Source: Cystobacter fuscus
GTDB taxonomy: Bacteria > Myxococcota > Myxococcia > Myxococcales > Myxococcaceae
Direction of reading: 5' to 3'
Length of the DNA stretch: 64,000 nt
NCBI RefSeq assembly: GCF_002305875.1
Contig: NZ_CP022098.1
Span: 5,394,001-5,458,000 of the forward strand
Part shown: one piece after another, positions 45,891-53,064 of the stretch
How the letters are laid out: each line of letters begins with the position of its first letter
Position numbering within the stretch: the first letter of the stretch is position 1
The notes under the pieces: model-generated
Seen by the model: only the letters and a program-made list of their open reading frames with translations
Told to the model about the DNA's origin: nothing
The model's database searches: none
Program-made: the position numbers and the translations under genes

Positions 45891-47231
45891 TCAGCCGCGG
45901 TGCCGCTCGGCTGCGCGGTAGAGCTGAGTAAGGGAGTAGTCCAGGAGCGCCTGTCGCGAGGTCATGTAGCGGCGAGCCCGAAGGAAGGGCAACCAGACGC
46001 GGTTGCCCACGAGCACCTGAGCCTCTTCGAGCTTCTGGCGCGGTATCCACCGGCCACCGAGGTGGCGCACCAGTACCTCACCCAGGTATGCGCCAATAGC
46101 GGGCACCGCGTGCTCGTCGATGGCTTCCCGCAGGCGGCTCTTCGGGAATTCCTCGCGCCAGAAGTAGAAGTCGGCGTCCGTGAGCGACTCTGGCGTTGCA
46201 TCGAAAACGGAGGCTACCTCCGAGTGCAGCAGCGCCACGAGGTGCTCCGCGAGGGTGCTGTAATGCTCGCGAGCGCGCTCTGGGCTCTCCATGTCTGGGG
46301 GGAGGGCGCAGTCGGCGGGGCGCCACTCCTCGGGCTCGGGCGGCTGCCACGCATTGAGTTCGGCAATCCTGCGTTGGCGCTCGTGACTGGCGGCGCGGTT
46401 CACTACACGCGACAGGAGCGGGGCCAGGTCCGGGTGGAAGCGGGGCTCCACAGGAGCGAGGCTCGCACTACGCTCGCCCAGGGTGCGCAGTATGGTGTCG
46501 AAGTCCAGGTCCGGCCGAAGGTGGGCGTGGGCGCGGGCCTGTGCGCGCCGTGCCTCCTTGCTGGCGAAATCCGCCACGGTGGGCCATGTCACCAGGAGGA
46601 CGGAACCATTGGGCAATTCATCTACCCGGTGGGCCGGTGTGGACAGCATGCGCTCGCGGCCCACGGTTTCCACCAGCTTGGGGCCGAAGACGTTGAGCCA
46701 GCACACCTCGTAGATTCTGTCGAAACCGTCTCTGAACAATGTCTCGTCATCGCGGCCGAAATTGGGAGAGCCCGCCAACACCGCGTCATCACTGCTGTGT
46801 GCCCAAGCATGAGTGACGGGGTAGCGGGAGGCCCAGGCGTGCACCATCTCCACGAAATGGCGGCAGCGATCCGCTTCCGCGAAGAAGGAGAGCGGCTTCA
46901 CGTTGATGGTGAGGTCCAGTTCAGGCGACTGTGGTGGGAGCCACAGCGAAAGCCGACCGTCCAGCGCGGGCCACTTCGTCCGATAGAGACCAAGGGCCGT
47001 GCTATCCCCATCGCGCCGCTCTTCCAGCGCCTTCCAAGTGGCGGCGCGAGCGTATTTGCGTTGCCGCTTGCCGTTGACAACGTCCGGCATCCACCCGTCG
47101 GCGTGCTTCTCAAGCGCGTTGAGGAAAGGCTCCAGCTCGCTTTCGAGTGCCGCTTGTGGATTGAATGCACCGTTGAAGATTAGCAGGAGGCTGTCCTCCG
47201 GCTTCACGCTGTGAAACTCTAGCACCTTCAT
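45891..47231 (-). CDS. Imm52-like immunity protein
   Basis: A 446-residue protein, full-length paralog of 2511-3848 and of the fragment at the left edge: starts MKVLEFHSVK, has 'ADGWMPDVVNGKRQRKY', 'LGLYRTKWPALDGRL', 'LNVFGPKLVETVGRERML' and a basic C-terminal segment ('LRARRYMTSRQALLDYSL'). No export signal. Its ATG overlaps the toxin stop (47228-47231), which supports co-expression as the antidote of that toxin. Confidence 0.72.
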   Translation of the reverse strand: MKVLEFHSVKPEDSLLLIFNGAFNPQAALESELEPFLNALEKHADGWMPDVVNGKRQRKYARAATWKALEERRDGDSTALGLYRTKWPALDGRLSLWLPPQSPELDLTINVKPLSFFAEADRCRHFVEMVHAWASRYPVTHAWAHSSDDAVLAGSPNFGRDDETLFRDGFDRIYEVCWLNVFGPKLVETVGRERMLSTPAHRVDELPNGSVLLVTWPTVADFASKEARRAQARAHAHLRPDLDFDTILRTLGERSASLAPVEPRFHPDLAPLLSRVVNRAASHERQRRIAELNAWQPPEPEEWRPADCALPPDMESPERAREHYSTLAEHLVALLHSEVASVFDATPESLTDADFYFWREEFPKSRLREAIDEHAVPAIGAYLGEVLVRHLGGRWIPRQKLEEAQVLVGNRVWLPFLRARRYMTSRQALLDYSLTQLYRAAERHRG

Positions 47232-49552
47232 TGGAACATTACCTCCACTCCTAGAACCTTTCTCTTGGTTTCGATCACGGCTGCTTTCAAGTAGTTTGGA
47301 TTCGTGGGCTTGAGCGCGCCCCCTTCATAGATAAGGCGAACCCGGTGGACGGGCACCTCGCTGCCCTCTGGGAGAAGGCGCTGGAGGGAGTCCCGGCGGA
47401 TGTCCAGCCTCTCGCCGTACTTGGACAGAGCTTCCCTCGCGTCCTCAACCATCTGCGCCGTCAAAGCGTCTCTCCCCAGCCCCGAGAGGTCGCGGCTCTT
47501 GAAGCTGAACGTCTCCACGCGCCGTGGCCGCCCGCCGAGCTCGCCCTCTTCGATGACGAGCACATCCGCGTAGCGCAGGCCGGGGCCCGGCTTCCTCACG
47601 CCCACCTGCACTTCAACGCGGGGTTTGTCGAAGTCCCGGAGGAAGCTGCGCTGGGCCCGAGGCTTCTCCGCGTCAGCCTTCAGCAGCTTCACCATGTCGG
47701 CCTCGAAGGCCATCCCCCGGGCAAACCACGCGCGCATCCGCTCGTAGGGCTCCCACTTGAGGGGGCCCTCGGCGGCCGTGCCCTTCTCCACCTCCCGCTG
47801 GCGCTTCTCGTAGTAGTCGACGTACTCGCGCCAGCGCGGGTTGCCCCGGGCCTCGGGCGGCGGGGCGTCGAGGGAGGGGCGGTGCTTCTCCAGCACGCCC
47901 ACGTCCTTGGGGAGACGCGGGCCCGTGGCCTCGAGCTCCGCGGCCGCGAGCTTCGCCTCCACCACTGCCGGCGTGTGGCCGACTCCCTCGTCTACGAGCG
48001 AGGCCAGTGTGCCCAGGTGCCCTGCGGCACCGGCCTTCGTAGCGGAGGGGCGTGCGGCCTCCCCGGCACCGGTCTCCGCGCCAGCCTTCAGGGGCTGGGA
48101 GCCCGTAGCCCCGGGCTTCGCCCTGGACATGAGCGGCCGAGCCCTGGCCACATCTCCCCCGGCCTCATGTAGCGCCAACGCGGCGTCGGCCCCGCCCACG
48201 GCGACGAAGCGGCCTGCCTCTCGGCTCGCTCGAACCTCCCGCACCAACTCCCGCAGGCCCTCCAGTCTCATCGCCCCTTTGAACTGCTGCGCCGTCTCCA
48301 TCACGGCCCGCAGGCGCGCTTCCGCGACCTCAACCCCGGAAGCGATGCGCAAGCGCACACCCGCGGCGCCTTCTGCCTTGGAGAGGTTGCGCAGACCTTT
48401 GCCACCCGCGATGAGGCCCAGCACCAGTGCTGGAGCCACCTCGCGCGCGCCCTCCTCCAGCTCTCCCCGCCAAAGCAACTTCCCGCCATGGAGGGTGGTG
48501 GCGACAGAGTGGTAGGCGCCCAGCGGCACACCAAAGGTGAGGTCATCAAAAGCACTCACCGCCATGCTGTCCGCCGCGGCTTTGCGCACCAACTCCTGCT
48601 CGGCCGTGGCGAGGGCCTCCTGGTACTCCGGCGGCAGTTGGAGTCGGATGGGGAGGAATGCGAAGTCCCGTCCGCCCCCGGTCATGAGTGAGCTGGAGAG
48701 CACGTCCTTCCCAGCTCGCACCAGGCCCCGGCCCAGGTCTCCGAGCTCGGAGTCCCGATCCACGCGGGCCGTGGGTTTCAGACCCCGCTTCTCCAATGCC
48801 ACCTGAAACGCGGGCAGCAGCGCGAGGGTTTCTGCCAGCCGCTTGTCCTGGGCCAGCAGGAACAGAATCTCTCTCAAGTCATCGTCATAGGCGGAGTCGA
48901 CGCTGTAGACGGCGAGCACCTGCGCGTTGAGGCGCCCATAGGCCTCAGGGGCCTTCACGAGGAGGGACTTGCGCTTCGCGTTGAGCTGGTGGGCAATGTC
49001 CTCGCGCGGTGGGCCCAGGGCGCCGAGTCGCACGGCGCGCCAGTCGTCCAGGGCCTCCAGAATGCGGGGCATGTCCACCCGCTCCTGGAGGGCGAGGACT
49101 TCCCCGGGCGAGGTGCACGAGAGGAAGGGGGCCAGCAGCTCCTCTCGGCTGGAGGACAAGTCGGGCCAGTCTGGGGGCACGGCCTGCCCTCCGCACGAGG
49201 GCGGCTCCTGCGGGGCGGCCCCCGTGCTGGCCACCTGAAACGCGGGCGCTTCGCCCGAGTTCGCCAGGGCTGCGTCCGAGCCCAGCCCGCGGGCGCTGCG
49301 GCGGCGGTGCAGCCGCTCCTGCTCGCCCGGCTTGGCGGAGAAGAGGGCCTCCTGCTCGCTCGCCTCCGTGGAAGCAAAGGGGGAGGGCGCCCCAAGCACG
49401 GGTGTACTGCCCCCCGCCTCTCTTAACGTAGACAGAGCGCGGAGGCCGGCGGTGCTGCCGCCTGGTCGCGGCGCCAGCGCGACGCAGCCGGTGGAGAGCA
49501 GCACCGCCCCCAGCAGCGCCGCCCACCCGTGCGCCCAGGCCTCAGCGCGCAC
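47228..49552 (-). CDS. SitA-like polymorphic lipoprotein toxin, second copy
   Basis: 774 residues from GTG 49552; earlier in-frame codons lie inside the upstream small gene and would spoil the signal peptide. The signal peptide ends in a lipobox (LLSTGC, Cys23). It aligns with the toxin at 337-2385 over the body ('FDDLTFGVPLGAYHSV', 'RILEALDDWRAVRLGALGP') and over the ~130-residue C-terminal domain ('DFDKPRVEVQVGVRKPG', 'RYADVLVIEE', 'ETFSFKSRDL', end 'GVEVMFQ'). The start overlaps the upstream small gene by 11 bp and the end overlaps the immunity gene by 4 bp, giving a three-gene unit like sitB-sitA-sitI. Confidence 0.65.
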   Translation of the reverse strand: MRAEAWAHGWAALLGAVLLSTGCVALAPRPGGSTAGLRALSTLREAGGSTPVLGAPSPFASTEASEQEALFSAKPGEQERLHRRRSARGLGSDAALANSGEAPAFQVASTGAAPQEPPSCGGQAVPPDWPDLSSSREELLAPFLSCTSPGEVLALQERVDMPRILEALDDWRAVRLGALGPPREDIAHQLNAKRKSLLVKAPEAYGRLNAQVLAVYSVDSAYDDDLREILFLLAQDKRLAETLALLPAFQVALEKRGLKPTARVDRDSELGDLGRGLVRAGKDVLSSSLMTGGGRDFAFLPIRLQLPPEYQEALATAEQELVRKAAADSMAVSAFDDLTFGVPLGAYHSVATTLHGGKLLWRGELEEGAREVAPALVLGLIAGGKGLRNLSKAEGAAGVRLRIASGVEVAEARLRAVMETAQQFKGAMRLEGLRELVREVRASREAGRFVAVGGADAALALHEAGGDVARARPLMSRAKPGATGSQPLKAGAETGAGEAARPSATKAGAAGHLGTLASLVDEGVGHTPAVVEAKLAAAELEATGPRLPKDVGVLEKHRPSLDAPPPEARGNPRWREYVDYYEKRQREVEKGTAAEGPLKWEPYERMRAWFARGMAFEADMVKLLKADAEKPRAQRSFLRDFDKPRVEVQVGVRKPGPGLRYADVLVIEEGELGGRPRRVETFSFKSRDLSGLGRDALTAQMVEDAREALSKYGERLDIRRDSLQRLLPEGSEVPVHRVRLIYEGGALKPTNPNYLKAAVIETKRKVLGVEVMFQ

Positions 49553-49955
49553 GGTCCACCCCCAGCCCCAAGAGGGCGTGGGCGGCTGGGCGCAGCGCCC
49601 CGTCCGCCTGCGGGCACAGCAGGGGGCCGCCCTCAGCCAGCGCATACAGCGTGCGGCTGAAGCGCCAGCGCACCTGGCCCGAGTACAGGTGGCGTGCCTC
49701 TGGTTGGCCCAGCCCCAACGCCGGCCCATTCAGGGCCACCTCCATGGTGCGGTGGGCCAGTTGCGCGGCGAGGCGCCCGTCCACGTTCACCCGGCCCTTG
49801 CCAAACACCCTCGCGCCCAAGGAGAGGTGCAGTTGGCGTTGCATCAGGTTGCGCCACCCACCCACCGTTGAAGCCGCGAGTGAAGGCACGGCCCCAGCGC
49901 TGAAGAGCGCAGGCTGTTGTGGCTGGGACAGCAGCACCAGCAGAGTGGACGTCAT
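49542..49955 (-). CDS. Small SitB-like accessory protein
   Basis: 137 residues from the ATG at 49955. The first ~18 residues are mildly hydrophobic (MTSTLLVLLSQ) but not a clear signal peptide. The rest has alternating polar/nonpolar strands ('RQLHLSLGARVFGKGRVNVD', 'HLYSGQVRWRFSRTLYALAE'). It overlaps the toxin start by 11 bp. By position it corresponds to SitB, the accessory gene often found before sitA in Myxococcus; the family match was not tested. No such gene precedes the left-hand modules. Confidence 0.5.
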   Translation of the reverse strand: MTSTLLVLLSQPQQPALFSAGAVPSLAASTVGGWRNLMQRQLHLSLGARVFGKGRVNVDGRLAAQLAHRTMEVALNGPALGLGQPEARHLYSGQVRWRFSRTLYALAEGGPLLCPQADGALRPAAHALLGLGVDRAR

Positions 49956-50033
49956 GAAACCATCGTAGCGGGGGTGCAAGGGCGCCTCACTCTGCGGTGA
50001 ACACCTGGGTCCGATGGTCACCCGCCGCAAACG

Positions 50034-50057
50034 CCCGTTTTCAGAGGAGAAAACGGG
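50034..50057 (-). terminator. Terminator of tRNA-Sec
   Basis: A perfect 9-bp stem (CCCGTTTTC with GAAAACGGG, 6-nt loop) begins 2 nt after the tRNA-Sec 3' end in the minus-strand direction. The stem ends in GGGCGTTTG, giving a short T-run. Confidence 0.6.
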
Positions 50058-50058
50058 A

Positions 50059-50154
50059 CGGTAGGACAGAGGAATCGAACCTCCCGGGGACATGTCTCCA
50101 TGCCCCCCACCGGTTTTGAAGACCGGGCCAGCCACCAGGTCCAGACGTCCTACC
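50059..50154 (-). tRNA. selC: tRNA-Sec (anticodon TCA)
   Basis: 96 nt on the minus strand. The 8-bp acceptor stem typical of bacterial tRNA-Sec is GGTAGGAC with GTCCTACC plus discriminator G. The anticodon stem is CCGGT/ACCGG around loop CTTCAAA (anticodon TCA). The long variable arm is GGGGGCATG-GAGA-CATGTCCCC and the T-arm is GAGG-TTCGATT-CCTC. CCA is not encoded. This decodes UGA as selenocysteine with SelB. Its 5' half is duplicated at 51892-51947. Confidence 0.95.
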
Positions 50155-50170
50155 GCGCGCGATTACCGCC
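50115..50170. repeat. attL-like direct repeat in tRNA-Sec
   Basis: 56 bp running from the anticodon loop of tRNA-Sec through its 5' end to 16 bp upstream. It is repeated in the same orientation at 51892-51947 with 54/56 identity; the two adjacent mismatches (AC versus TG) fall at tRNA positions 9-10, just after the 8-bp acceptor stem. This is the pattern left by site-specific integration into a tRNA gene. Confidence 0.85.
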
Positions 50171-50190
50171 GGAACTCCGGGCGGTTACAA
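50162..50190 (-). promoter_or_regulatory. Promoter of tRNA-Sec, element-derived -35
   Basis: Reading the minus strand: TTGTAA (50190-50185), 17 nt, GGTAAT (50167-50162), then 7 nt to the tRNA 5' end. The -10 box lies within the 56-bp repeat, while the -35 box lies beyond it, inside the insertion. At the right repeat the equivalent place has TTGACG 18 nt before GGTAAT, presumably the ancestral promoter. Confidence 0.5.
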
Positions 50191-50245
50191 GGGGATTGTC
50201 TCCTTGATCGCTCCCTGACGGTCTTCCGGTACCAGGAATGGTACC

Positions 50246-50398
50246 AAGGAGCCGCAGGATGCCGCGCTGGACGGGCACCTGGAGTGGAGGCCGCAAGTAC
50301 CAGAAGGCAATGGGCGGACGGTGTACGTGATCCGCAAGACGGTGGAGGGGGTCGCGTACCAGCACACGCCTGCCCGTCGCCGCTCCCGTCGCTCCTGA
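50246..50398 (+). pseudogene. Possible integrase N-terminal remnant
   Basis: A 50-codon open stretch ending in TGA contains 'NGRTVYVIRKTVEGVAYQ', which resembles the N-terminal arm-binding strands of phage tyrosine recombinases, then runs into a basic out-of-frame tail. No start codon or catalytic domain follows. A different frame at 50421-50600 ('SEQHVRQLVSYFECIVNDVV') could be other phage debris. The identification is tentative. Confidence 0.3.
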
Positions 50399-50586
50399 GC
50401 CCGCCCAGGCCCTGGAGCCGGTGCTCTCCGAGCAGCACGTCCGCCAGCTCGTCAGCTACTTCGAGTGCATCGTCAACGATGTGGTCAATCCCGAGCACAG
50501 CCAGCTCACCGATAGCTCCCTGGATGGCACCCGGCGCATGGTTCGCGAGGGCGTCACCGAGGATGATGTAAGGCAGGCGCTCGCTC

Positions 50587-50869
50587 AGAAGCCTGCTCGG
50601 ATCGTCGATGGGCTGCAACCAGGTGAAGGGCGATGGACCGCTGTTCAAGGGCAGGGGGATCATCCAGCTCACGGGCCGGTCGAATTACGCGCGGTTCTCC
50701 AGGTTCATGAAGTCCATCGACATCATGATGAATCCGAAGTGCGTTGCGGACCCGAAGCTGGCGTTCCGAGCTGCCGCGTGATTCTGGACCGAGAGGGGAC
50801 TCAATGAGCTGGCTGACCGACTCAGTGGCGACAACTTCGAGCCGACCTACAAGTCCATCACCCAGCAGG
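50587..50869 (+). pseudogene. GH19 chitinase/endolysin fragment with nonsense codon
   Basis: The frame encodes 'GDGPLFKGRGIIQLTGRSNY' and ARFSRFMKSIDIMMNPKCV, then 'DPKLAFRAAA', TGA (50779-50781), 'FWTERGLNELADRLSGDNF' and EPTYKSITQQV. This is the substrate-binding core of GH19 enzymes, common as phage endolysins. The TGA stands where family members have Trp (AAWFW), so it is a TGG-to-TGA nonsense mutation. The N-terminal catalytic part is missing and the homology ends where the convergent defensin gene's stop codon begins. Confidence 0.7.
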
Positions 50870-51202
50870 TCACTTCCTGTGGCAATGACATTCCTGCCAA
50901 AGGAAGCCGCCACACTCGCCGTGTTTATAACCGATGCTCCTGCAATGATCGTTGCATTGGTATTCATTGAATGGGCAGCCGAACTGTCCCCCAACAGTAG
51001 AGTTGGGCTTTTCGCTTTGATCCACGGACGATGAAGACTGTTGTCCCGTTCGTTCACCCGAGGAGCTCCACCACTCCACTTGGGTCGCCGAGGTCGTTGC
51101 TTTGTCATGCGCTTCTGGCGCTGCGATTCCGTCTGTGCTCCAAGCGCCCAGCACTACGGCCACCGCGATCAGCGCACCATTCATCCATTTTTGAGTCATC
51201 AT
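50870..51202 (-). CDS. Secreted CS-alpha-beta defensin (ancient invertebrate-type) precursor
   Basis: 110 residues; AGAAGG lies 8 nt before the first of two ATGs. Layout: signal peptide (~1-28, 'ALIAVAVVLGAWSTDGIAA'), Ser/Gln-rich propeptide (~29-73), and a ~37-residue C-terminal peptide starting FGCPFNEYQC. Its six Cys (76, 83, 87, 97, 105, 107) follow C-x6-C-x3-C-x9-C-x7-C-x-C with GEC as the gamma-core, the cysteine-stabilised alpha-beta signature. The pattern is nearly that of dragonfly and mollusc defensins (C-x6-C-x3-C-x10-C-x7-C-x-C). Myxobacterial defensin-like peptides such as AdDLP of Anaeromyxobacter are known. The codon use is AT-richer than the neighbours, and the gene lies inside the tRNA-Sec element. 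It likely targets bacterial cell-wall precursor or membranes; activity is inferred. Confidence 0.85.
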   Translation of the reverse strand: MMTQKWMNGALIAVAVVLGAWSTDGIAAPEAHDKATTSATQVEWWSSSGERTGQQSSSSVDQSEKPNSTVGGQFGCPFNEYQCNDHCRSIGYKHGECGGFLWQECHCHRK

Positions 51203-51523
51203 TACTTCACCCTTCTGTTTTCGTTGCGGCTTGGGGCATTTGCTTCTTTTTGAACTTGGTTGGCTCTGATGATTCTGTCACCTGCGGAAAGTCCTAGGAT
51301 ACAGAGGTCGGCATCTTAGAAGGCAAATCGCCGACCCCTTGCCTCTCTAGTCTCTCTCTGCGAACCGAAAATGGACGATGGGGCCCACTATTCTATTCTC
51401 TTTGCACTTTCAGGCTGATTGGCATGTGGCAACCCTAAACTCATTGGACGGCATGTGGAGGGTCTGTTTGGCGGTAGCCGTGGATTTCTGACTGGAGGCG
51501 AAAGACAAGCGTCCCATGGCTCA
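51203..51523. other. Low-GC spacer upstream of the defensin gene
   Basis: This 321-bp stretch holds the defensin ribosome site (51203-51218) and should hold its promoter. It is markedly AT-richer than the chromosome. No coding sequence, tRNA or clear promoter boxes are recognised. Confidence 0.4.
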
Positions 51524-51955
51524 TCAAGTGACCAGTGGCCCCTTTCCATCATCCGGGTCGGGTTCCTCTTCATCAGGGACCGGCATCCGAGCCTCCAAGA
51601 CGATCCCGCCCTCGGAGTCCGCCTCGGCATCAGCTTCGTTGTGGAGCGCGTGGAGAAGCTCCGGGTCCAACTCTTCCTCCACGGCCATCGCCACGAGCCT
51701 CAGTCGCTCGCCGCTCAGCGCCAGGAGCCCGGCGACGTAGGCGGGTGCGTGGGCGGCCTGCTCGTCCCGGGTGAAGGCACGGTCGCGCAGCGACTCGGCA
51801 CCAATATCTGTACCTTGAGCGGCGACAGTCAGGGCGGTGTCGCGAGGGGTTTCAGAGGGATACACACCTGGATGACGGTCGCTGGTCCGCGTTTGAAGAC
51901 CGGGCCAGCCACCAGGTCCAGTGGTCCTACCGCGCGCGATTACCGCCACGAGCAC
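51524..51955 (-). CDS. Uncharacterised small ORF, 5' end formed by the attR repeat
   Basis: 143 codons from GTG 51955, but the first ~25 codons are only the duplicated tRNA-Sec sequence read through, so the natural start is lost or further in. The part that looks coding (~45-143) reads 'DEQAAHAPAYVAGLLALSGE' and RLRLVAMAVEEELDPELLHAL, then an acidic tail (PVPDEEEPDPDDG). I do not recognise it. It may be the C-terminal part of an element gene fused to the chromosome on integration. Confidence 0.35.
   Translation of the reverse strand: MLVAVIARGRTTGPGGWPGLQTRTSDRHPGVYPSETPRDTALTVAAQGTDIGAESLRDRAFTRDEQAAHAPAYVAGLLALSGERLRLVAMAVEEELDPELLHALHNEADAEADSEGGIVLEARMPVPDEEEPDPDDGKGPLVT
51892..51947. 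repeat. attR-like direct repeat (partial tRNA-Sec copy)
   Basis: The second copy of the 56-bp repeat. It contains only the 5' half of tRNA-Sec, cut at the anticodon loop, and leads into a TTGACG box (51963-51968 on the minus strand) that could be the original promoter. Chromosomal genes resume 32 bp to the right. Confidence 0.85.
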
Positions 51956-51978: not shown

Positions 51979-53064
51979 TCAGTCCAGCCCCCGCTGCCAG
52001 AGGTCCTCCTCGTCGAGCCCCATCAAGTGTCCGACCTCGTGCATCACCGTGATGCCGATCTGCTCGATGAGCTCCTCGCGCGTTCGCGCGAAGCGCTCCA
52101 GGTTCTTCTGGTACAGCACGATGGAGGCCGGATAGGGATCGAACGTGCCCAGGATGCTGTGCCGCTCGCCCACCGGCGAGCCCCGGAACACCCCCAGGAT
52201 GCATGGGGAGAGGGGAGGGGACTCGCCCATCAAGTCCTCGTCCTTGGGAATCTCCTCCACCGCGAGCGTCACGTTGTCCAGGTACTCCTTCACGTGCGTC
52301 GGCAGCGCCTTCACCGCGTCCTCGACGGCCTTGTCGAACGCCTCTTCCCCCAGCTCCACCGGGGGCGGGAACTCCTCGGGCGCCAGGGCGCGCGCCCTCG
52401 CGAAGTGCCCGAGCGCCGCCTTCCCATCCCCCCGCCGCTCCGCCAGCAGCCCCAGGTAGTGGTGCGCCCACGGCTCGTCCGCGGCGTCGCCCAGCAGATC
52501 CTCGAGCACCGCCTCCGCCTCGCCGAAACGGCACAGCTCGAACAGGGCGATCGCCCGCTCCAGCCTCGCCTCCACCGAGCGCGGCACGTGCCCGAGCGCC
52601 GCCTCCAGGCTCGTCAGGGCCCGCGCACATTCTCCTACCTGATTGAGCCCAATGCCCTCCCACAGGAGGAACTCGAAGAGCAGCTCGATGTCCCCGGCGC
52701 GCTGGGCGAGCTTGCGTCCGCGGGCGCACAGGGCGAGCCCGTCCTCCACCGCCTCGCGATCGTCTCCCACCCGACCCACCAGACATTCAGTGGCCGACAG
52801 CAGCAGCTCCAGGTCATCCGGGGCGACCTTCACGGCGCGTGAGTAGGTCTCCAGGGCCTCGTCGAGCCGTCCCAGCTCGGTGAGGGCCGCCGCGCGCCAG
52901 TGCAGGGCCTCGGCCAGGGAGTCGTCCTCGGCCAGCAGCGCGTCCGCTCCGGCCAGGGCCTCCTGGTGGGCACCCCGGTCGAAAGCCGCCGCCACCCCCT
53001 CGAGCCGGGCCTCCCAATCCGCCGGTGCCCGCTTCGACGTCCGCTTCCCCATGCTCGGCGACAT
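51979..53064 (-). CDS. TPR protein with C-terminal zincin metallopeptidase domain
   Basis: 361 residues (or from the in-frame ATG at 53052). The first ~240 residues are TPR-like helical repeats ('EALHWRAAALTELGRLDEAL', 'PWAHHYLGLLAERRGDGKAA'). The C-terminal ~110 residues match the small 'metallopeptidase family' zincins: 'VEEIP' early, then 'ITVMHEVGHLMGLDEEDL' with the HExxH zinc site. No signal peptide. It is the first undisturbed chromosomal gene right of the element and is divergent from the receiver gene at 53144. Confidence 0.8.
   Translation of the reverse strand: MSPSMGKRTSKRAPADWEARLEGVAAAFDRGAHQEALAGADALLAEDDSLAEALHWRAAALTELGRLDEALETYSRAVKVAPDDLELLLSATECLVGRVGDDREAVEDGLALCARGRKLAQRAGDIELLFEFLLWEGIGLNQVGECARALTSLEAALGHVPRSVEARLERAIALFELCRFGEAEAVLEDLLGDAADEPWAHHYLGLLAERRGDGKAALGHFARARALAPEEFPPPVELGEEAFDKAVEDAVKALPTHVKEYLDNVTLAVEEIPKDEDLMGESPPLSPCILGVFRGSPVGERHSILGTFDPYPASIVLYQKNLERFARTREELIEQIGITVMHEVGHLMGLDEEDLWQRGLD

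What the first reader, a model, noticed from the sequence alone, without database searches (positions are those of the whole stretch)
50870..51202. A bacterial defensin of the ancient invertebrate type
The minus-strand gene encodes a signal peptide, a propeptide and a terminal peptide whose six cysteines follow C-x6-C-x3-C-x9-C-x7-C-x-C, nearly the spacing of dragonfly and mollusc defensins. It also has the CxxxC helix motif, GxC gamma-core and CxC end. Defensin-like peptides are rare in bacteria (AdDLP of Anaeromyxobacter is the known myxobacterial case, cited in favour of a myxobacterial origin of eukaryotic defensins). This copy is complete, has a propeptide and lies on a tRNA-integrated element, which offers a route for horizontal spread.
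Basis: partly seen in the sequence, partly recalled or inferred. Interest (0 to 1): 0.95.

Follow-up and report, generated by a model that had tools for sequence, protein, structure and literature searches.

The report
Bacterial defensin on an integrated element
A predatory soil bacterium carries a complete gene for a secreted peptide of the same small disulphide-rich family that scorpions, molluscs and fungi use against bacteria; such bacterial defensins are already published, but here the gene sits in a piece of foreign-looking DNA that has inserted at a tRNA gene.

Summary
Window 50870-51202 (-) encodes a 110-residue precursor: Sec-like signal, polar propeptide, and a 38-residue peptide with Cys spacing 6-3-9-7-1. 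It passes Pfam's Defensin_2 cut-off, is 54-59% identical to scorpion, fungal and actinomycete defensins of known structure, and is predicted to fold as helix plus two strands. Zhu et al. 2021 already report such defensins in Cystobacter and Melittangium, and Cardoso et al. 2024 a class IV "fuscusin-2", so the peptide is almost certainly in print (their tables could not be read). What I add is context: a 1.78-kb insert between repeats of the 5' half of tRNA-Sec, with relic integrase and relic endolysin, foreign composition (GC3 0.60 against 0.91-0.97), and an uninterrupted site in 7 of 8 other genomes examined. FGCP and His before Cys3 are kept, so plectasin/actifensin-like lipid II binding is the most likely action; this is untested, and charge is near zero. 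The patchy, mobile, foreign-looking gene points to horizontal gain and does not support an ancestral myxobacterial origin of defensins.

The parts
50870..51202 (-). defensin precursor gene, 110 aa, stop at 50870-50872
   Evidence: Pfam Defensin_2 28.8 bits over cut-off 20.4; NCBIfam actinodefensin 1.3e-11, 44.9 bits, below its cut-off of 65
51122..51202 (-). signal peptide, about residues 1-27 (basic n-region, hydrophobic core, G-I-A end)
   Evidence: read by eye from the translation; inference
50987..51121 (-). propeptide or N-terminal tail, about residues 28-72, 45 aa, Ser/Thr/Gln-rich, 6 acidic and 3 basic (K/R) residues
   Evidence: limits by eye
50873..50986 (-). mature defensin QFGCPFNEYQCNDHCRSIGYKHGECGGFLWQECHCHRK, 38 aa, six Cys
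   Evidence: homology; predicted helix plus two strands, (mean pLDDT 75.8 and 74.4); Foldseek; start inferred from eukaryotic mature peptides
51211..51215 (-). GAAGG, Shine-Dalgarno-like, 8 nt before the ATG
   Evidence: sequence, by eye
50059..50154 (-). complete tRNA-Sec (TCA anticodon)
   Evidence: ARAGORN
50110..50170 (.). direct repeat, left copy (5' half of tRNA-Sec plus 16 nt upstream): att-like
51887..51947 (.). direct repeat, right copy (93% identical), on the conserved TPR/zincin-groEL side
   Evidence: searches show this side continuous with tRNA-Sec in genomes without the insert
50171..51886 (.). inserted element (GC 0.60 against 0.68 for the window), absent at this site from G001 and G003
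50259..50390 (+). relic 5' end of a tyrosine-recombinase (integrase) gene, frameshifted and cut off; right limit approximate
   Evidence: 84% DNA match of window 50049-50364 to L073 6904-7220; the frame there (L073 7114-7857, no Pfam hit itself) is 43% identical over 180 aa to its neighbour L073 5369-6850, which scores 35.3 bits for Pfam Phage_integrase, cut-off 27.1
50608..50781 (+). relic of a GH19-type phage endolysin/chitinase
   Evidence: PHROG 181 endolysin 2.8e-16; Pfam Glyco_hydro_19 0.0024, 18.1 bits, below cut-off 25.5; what may be its continuation reads on in the same frame after a stop, no family match

Best explanation
The gene makes a secreted bacterial defensin of the ancient-invertebrate (GXGCP) type. 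The precursor is exported through Sec, loses its signal peptide and then its N-terminal propeptide, and the 38-residue peptide folds, with three disulphides, into a helix packed on a two-stranded sheet. It most likely binds lipid II on competing or prey Gram-positive bacteria as plectasin and actifensin do (FGC on the pyrophosphate, His before Cys3 to the gamma-glutamate) and stops cell-wall synthesis. C. fuscus received it as cargo of an integrative element that entered the 5' half of the tRNA-Sec gene; the element has since decayed, its integrase and endolysin being relics, and the defensin is the one recognisable intact gene in the insert. Shown here: gene, homology, predicted fold, insertion, relic genes, foreign composition. 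Inferred: secretion, processing, disulphide pairing, lipid II binding, ecological role, and that the element brought the gene.
For: Pfam Defensin_2 over cut-off. PDB sequence matches to BmKDfsin3, 2ru0 (actinomycesin), micasin, oyster defensin, MGD-1. NCBIfam actinodefensin 1.3e-11. 56% and 52% identity to two peptides of Actinomyces denticolens. Helix-strand-strand in both models; solved CS-alpha-beta defensins as top Foldseek hits (5xa6: 59% identity, probability 1.00, E 0.0069). Lipid II features: Phe2, Gly3, Cys4, His18 and Cys37 of plectasin are named as key in a passage of PMC10771296; the window peptide has F74-G75-C76-P77, H86 just before the third Cys, and the fifth Cys. PMC12284004 section 8 defines the GXGCP group and its His before Cys3; actifensin of that group binds lipid II (Kd 30 +/- 20 nM, abstract). 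Mobility: repeats, uninterrupted sites, relic integrase, endolysin relic, GC3 0.595 against 0.965, 0.909 and 0.908 for three native neighbours.
Against: The mature peptide has 4 K/R and 4 D/E, so about neutral apart from four His; Zhu et al. report net positive charge for 80% of bacterial defensins. Of the further plectasin contacts listed, Tyr29 and Tyr40 appear as Glu96 and His108 here (mapping by Cys positions, from recall of plectasin). Xanthusin-1, a myxobacterial class II defensin, had no activity in Cardoso et al., though PMC12284004 says it had. Foldseek hits do not reach E 0.001 and VIA-align gives no Z of 5 or more in 147 chains. The setting between ABC transporter genes described for Actinomyces is lacking; no protease or immunity gene was recognised in the insert by the Pfam and PHROG scans of the frames that I submitted. 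No sigma-70-like promoter site in 50700-51600 (shuffles mean 0.4, so uninformative). No expression data.
Confidence: 0.6

Rival explanations
1. A true defensin fold with another job: activity on eukaryotic prey or channels, a signalling or developmental peptide, or enzyme inhibition, with no useful antibacterial effect.
For: Near-neutral charge. The best relative, BmKDfsin3, comes from an entry titled 'Ion channel modulation by scorpion haemolymph and its defensin ingredients'. Xanthusin-1 was inactive in Cardoso et al..
Against: FGCP plus His before Cys3 is kept, while the G002 peptide L017 has RGCP and Tyr before Cys3. The related actinomycesin and actifensin are antibacterial.
Confidence: 0.2
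2. A passenger: the open frame survives by chance on a decaying insert and is not expressed or processed in this strain.
For: The recognisable neighbours in the insert are relics. Absent at this site from the three same-genus genomes held.
Against: The 110-codon frame is intact, with all six Cys and a Shine-Dalgarno-like site, while the neighbouring relics are broken. Recent insertion could explain this equally.
Confidence: 0.16
3. A vertically inherited ancient myxobacterial defensin, supporting a myxobacterial origin of eukaryotic defensins.
For: G002 has a peptide of identical Cys spacing. Class I/II-like precursors occur in other genomes of the family.
Against: Clean absence at the locus in G001 and G003; foreign composition; 28% identity to the G002 peptide against 54-59% to scorpion, fungal and actinomycete peptides (the tree there has no supported branch). 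G002's copy lies elsewhere in its genome (C1:764943, tRNA-Sec at about C1:4722750).
Confidence: 0.05
4. A chance or convergent Cys-rich frame, not a defensin.
For: Short sequence; GC-rich frames give spurious PF01097 hits (the G003 hit L032 is one).
Against: 59% identity over 37 residues to 5xa6; E-values of 1e-9 to 1e-7 in PDB and 1e-6 in Pfam; complete precursor architecture.
Confidence: 0.01

Closest known systems
Cystobacter and Melittangium AITD-like defensins of Zhu et al. 2021 (PMC8819291)
   Same: same genus, same signal-propeptide-mature precursor order, same short n-loop; probably the very gene
   Different: their Dataset EV2 could not be read, so identity of the sequence is not shown; the passages and section 9 that I read say nothing of a tRNA-Sec insert
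fuscusin-2 and class IV bacterial defensins of Cardoso et al. 2024 (PMC11561630)
   Same: name built on a species epithet, here read as fuscus; N-terminal tail of 21-53 aa (here about 45), three disulphides
   Different: sequence tables are supplementary and were not read; the tail is there counted as part of the peptide
actinodefensins: actinomycesin (2ru0), actifensin, NCBIfam NF038042
   Same: same Cys spacing, FGCP, His before Cys3; 54% identity to 2ru0, 56% and 52% to A. denticolens peptides
   Different: those are described as lacking a classical signal peptide and, in Actinomyces, clustered between ABC transporter genes; here a Sec-like signal by eye and a single gene; 44.9 bits is under the family cut-off of 65
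eukaryotic ancient-invertebrate-type defensins (BmKDfsin3 5xa6, micasin 2lr5, MGD-1 1fjn, oyster defensin 2b68, plectasin 1zfu)
   Same: 59, 54, 53, 48 and 36% identity; same predicted fold; FGCP (FGC in plectasin, from recall)
   Different: bacterial gene; Gln in place of the first Gly; neutral charge

Membership tests
CS-alpha-beta (cis-)defensin, Defensin_2 (PF01097) | profile score over the gathering cut-off | tested here: met
   28.8 bits against 20.4, residues 74-107 to profile 2-33 of 34
CS-alpha-beta (cis-)defensin, Defensin_2 (PF01097) | six Cys with CxxxC, GxC and CxC | tested here: met
   translation; pattern scan
CS-alpha-beta (cis-)defensin, Defensin_2 (PF01097) | helix plus antiparallel two-stranded sheet | tested here: met
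   predicted only: H11-20, E25-29, E35-39 in both models, mean pLDDT 75.8 and 74.4, pTM 0.48 and 0.49; antiparallel order is inferred from the matched folds
CS-alpha-beta (cis-)defensin, Defensin_2 (PF01097) | disulphides 1-4, 2-5, 3-6 | not testable with these tools
   no coordinates or chemistry available
Ancient invertebrate-type / GXGCP defensins | short n-loop, aromatic-G-C-P at the N-terminus, His before Cys3 | tested here: met
   QFGCP and H86-C87 against the definition in PMC12284004 section 8; the first Gly of GXG is Gln
Ancient invertebrate-type / GXGCP defensins | lipid II binding | not testable with these tools
   bench assay needed
Actinodefensin NF038042 | score over the curated cut-off | tested here: not met
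   44.9 bits against 65; related (1.3e-11) but not filed as a member
Actinodefensin NF038042 | gene between ABC transporter genes (as described for Actinomyces) | tested here: not met
   flanking ORFs 47228-49729 (no Pfam family) and 51979-53064 (TPR, Zincin_1) and the relics between them show no ABC transporter domain
Class IV bacterial defensin (Cardoso et al.) | secreted, N-terminal tail of 21-53 residues before the defensin core, three disulphides | tested here: inconclusive
   tail of about 45 residues fits the definition; secretion judged by eye, not by their Phobius step; whether the tail stays on is unknown
tRNA-integrated genetic element | direct repeat of part of a tRNA gene at both ends | tested here: met
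tRNA-integrated genetic element | uninterrupted site in relatives | tested here: met
   of 8 other genomes whose flanks were fetched (chosen from 58 searched), 7 run through (G001, G003, G010, G030, G038, G051, G057) and G002 holds about 1 kb of other DNA there; base-level alignment for G003 only
tRNA-integrated genetic element | functional integrase | tested here: not met
   only a frameshifted 5' remnant at 50259-~50390; a decayed element

The most novel reading that the evidence does not exclude
The tRNA-Sec gene of the Cystobacterineae is a hotspot for integrative elements that carry weapons (a SitA5-type toxin in genome G010, a defensin here). Through this route a defensin of the animal/fungal/actinomycete type moved recently and horizontally into a myxobacterium, so that the scattered bacterial defensins reflect transfer on mobile elements and not common descent from a myxobacterial ancestor.
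Probability: 0.35. Interest if true: 0.6.

Novelty: already known. Interest (0 to 1): 0.42.

Why it matters
Bacterial defensins are antibiotic leads and bear on whether eukaryotic defensins came from myxobacteria. If this copy arrived on an integrative element, the case cited for a myxobacterial origin has a concrete horizontal alternative, and the tRNA-Sec site becomes a place to look for more. The peptide keeps the lipid II features despite near-neutral charge, so it is also a cheap test of how much charge the mechanism needs.

Tried and rejected
Full-length protein search of 98 genomes (own included): 69 matched at E <= 1, but only the window's own copy was strong, the next best being E 0.009. 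Of the 30 loci fetched there, two besides the window's own had the loose Cys pattern: G002 (E 0.07, L017), a real precursor, and L008, an Arg/Ser-rich frame that I judge spurious. PF01097 in 195 Myxococcota genomes: 27 matched at E <= 0.1, 4 over cut-off (G000, G003, G130, G032); 4 of 14 control genomes rang, 0 over cut-off. G003 (L032) is a spurious frame; G032 (L036) shows a Cys/Arg-rich low-complexity frame that I judge spurious; G130 (L035) is a class I/II-like precursor. This search did not list G002, whose peptide scores only 13.8 bits for PF01097, so it misses real relatives and its counts are lower bounds. NF038042 in the same 195 genomes: 7 at E <= 0.01, none over cut-off, 0 of 14 controls; besides G000 and G002, two (L093, L095) are class I/II-like precursors and three (L096, L097, L098) showed no defensin Cys pattern. 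L054 is a further class I/II-like frame; L037 has lost Cys1; L059 passed the loose pattern as a short Cys/Arg/Trp frame judged spurious.

No relative in plasmids or phages by tblastn at E <= 1; 0 of 9 pattern matches confirmed in viral contigs; genome contigs gave 0 of 13 with the full protein and 1 of 9 with the four-sequence alignment, Actinomyces denticolens. These scans need exact short peptide patterns, so absence is weak evidence. Alignment A6 of class I/II peptides found nothing in G000-G003, without a positive control, although Cardoso et al. list class II in Cystobacter and Melittangium. The eight-row tree has no supported branch, so the donor (animal, fungus, actinobacterium) is not decided. 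The window's left neighbour (47228-49729) and the frame at 49542-49958 resemble L073 genes that might be a SitBA-like pair, but no SitA model matched either. A tie between defensins and SitA genes was considered: near G002's defensin lies a TIGR02269-like frame (E 1.9e-4, 21.0 bits, cut-off 85.75), a hint only. No defensin pattern was sought in every other tRNA-Sec island.

Full report
What is there. The minus-strand ORF 50870-51202 is as described: 110 codons from an ATG preceded by GAAGG. By eye, residues 1-27 are a Sec-type signal, 28-72 a polar tail with 6 acidic and 3 basic (K/R) residues, and 73-110 a six-Cys peptide, QFGCPFNEYQCNDHCRSIGYKHGECGGFLWQECHCHRK. The Cys spacing 6-3-9-7-1 is exact. 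Pfam Defensin_2 scores 28.8 bits over a cut-off of 20.4. The best PDB sequences are BmKDfsin3 (7.6e-9), 2ru0 (9e-8), micasin (1.6e-7) and oyster defensin (1.6e-5). titles 2ru0 actinomycesin, a bacterial peptide, although labels it arthropod defensin.

Fold. AlphaFold2 on the 41-residue end gave helix 11-20 and strands 25-29 and 35-39 with 2 sequences (mean pLDDT 75.8, pTM 0.48) and again with 8 (74.4, 0.49). Foldseek's first hits are CS-alpha-beta defensins, 5xa6 first at 59% identity, probability 1.00, though none of 111 matches reaches E 0.001. VIA-align on the second model gives Z up to 4.9 (a scorpion toxin of this fold), none of 147 chains at 5 or more, a middling value. Disulphide pairing was not testable.

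Whose genome. The window lies in a one-contig genome of 12,349,744 bp, the exact size given for Cystobacter fuscus DSM 52655 in the abstract of PMC5658505.

What is in print. Zhu et al. 2021 (PMC8819291; passages and section 9) mined microbial genomes, found 48 defensin-like peptides only in actinobacteria and myxobacteria, named Melittangium and Cystobacter as the myxobacterial genera, and described for the myxobacterial precursors the organisation of fungal and tick ones. Cardoso et al. 2024 (PMC11561630; passages, outline, Results part 1 of 2, Discussion) list 74 bacterial defensins in five classes; class IV has a tail of 21-53 residues, three of its five members come from Archangiaceae, and its prototype is fuscusin-2. 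Among the loci fetched by searches of up to 195 Myxococcota genomes, the only peptides with this Cys spacing that I could confirm are the window's and one in G002; the PF01097 search alone missed the G002 one. So this gene is very probably the Cystobacter peptide of Zhu et al. and possibly fuscusin-2. The supplementary tables were not readable here, so letter-for-letter identity is not shown.

The element. tRNA-Sec (50059-50154, minus) has its 5' half and 16 nt of upstream DNA repeated at 51887-51947. In G003 and G001, 96% identical over the right flank, the left flank runs straight into the right flank with one copy of the repeat (blastn on fetched loci; base-level alignment for G003). Of 8 other genomes whose flanks I fetched, out of 58 searched, 7 are uninterrupted at this point; G002 has about 1 kb of other DNA and shares about 43 nt past the repeat with the window's insert. 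The insert begins with a match (84% over 321 columns, tRNA included) to a place in G010 where a second tRNA-Sec is followed by an integrase 5' end. That frame is 43% identical to its neighbour, which passes Pfam Phage_integrase. In the window the frame is broken and short. Next comes a relic of a GH19-type endolysin (PHROG 181, 2.8e-16). The insert has GC 0.60, the defensin ORF 0.547 with GC3 0.595; groEL, the TPR gene and the response regulator have GC3 0.965, 0.909 and 0.908; 1.1% of 333-nt steps in the window have GC as low.

Neighbourhood of the site in relatives. In G010 a SitA5-type toxin lipoprotein (375 bits, cut-off 160) lies beside the island integrase, and in several genomes partial tRNA-Sec copies lie up to some 54 kb away. 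SitA toxins and their link to mobile elements are described in PMC5562445 (passages). The site thus looks like a hotspot for weapon-bearing elements. The defensin itself was matched at no other tRNA-Sec site, which limits this to a suggestion.

Mechanism. Plectasin's action depends on Phe2, Gly3, Cys4, His18 and Cys37, which contact lipid II (PMC10771296, passage). PMC12284004 (passages and section 8) groups such peptides as GXGCP, notes the His before the third Cys, and shows that actifensin binds lipid II. The window peptide has FGCP, His before Cys3 and Cys5; the G002 peptide has neither the Phe nor the His. Against this stands the charge: 4 K/R, 4 D/E, 4 His. I put the lipid II mechanism, with horizontal arrival, at 0.6.

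Origin. Pairwise identity is 59% to BmKDfsin3, 56% and 52% to two A. denticolens peptides, 55% to micasin, 54% to 2ru0, 50% to oyster defensin and 28% to G002; a tree of these eight has no supported branch. With the insert evidence this favours horizontal gain from a donor that cannot be named. It does not support an inherited myxobacterial defensin.

Verdict. The novelty claim does not, except for the mobile setting. No paper listed (25 of 29 shown), 11, 73 and 93 speaks of it in its title or in the start of the abstract shown, and the parts that I read do not mention it; that is a limited search of open papers, not proof that it is unreported.

Noticed in passing
50059-50154 and 51887-51947: After the insertion the complete tRNA-Sec keeps only 16 nt of the repeat upstream of it, so it may now be transcribed from the element; its 5' half differs from the right copy at a few bases.
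   Followed up: partly
47228-49729 and 49542-49958 (-): Lipoprotein-like 833-aa ORF beside tRNA-Sec with 40% identity over 133 columns near its start to a gene of G010 (L073 12799-14430), and a 138-aa frame matching the C-terminal part of L073 14357-15706 (58% over 118), which looks like an internally deleted partner gene: a possible SitBA-like toxin pair.
   Followed up: partly
L073 1-16001 (G010): Stretch beside tRNA-Sec copies with SitA5-type lipoprotein genes, an intact-looking integrase and a cut one on either side of a second tRNA-Sec, and genes that look like an insertion sequence (by eye).
   Followed up: partly
L017/L087 (G002, C1:764943): Second myxobacterial peptide of identical Cys spacing with a lipoprotein-like signal (LSAC); a convergent frame downstream resembles the end of SitA6-type toxins (TIGR02269, E 1.9e-4, below cut-off).
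   Followed up: partly
L037 (G136, C1:2632050): Class I/II-like defensin precursor in which the first Cys is Arg, leaving five Cys: possibly decaying.
   Followed up: no
PMC12284004 against PMC11561630: The two papers disagree: the 2025 paper says xanthusin-1 was antimicrobial, the 2024 source says it showed no activity.
   Followed up: no
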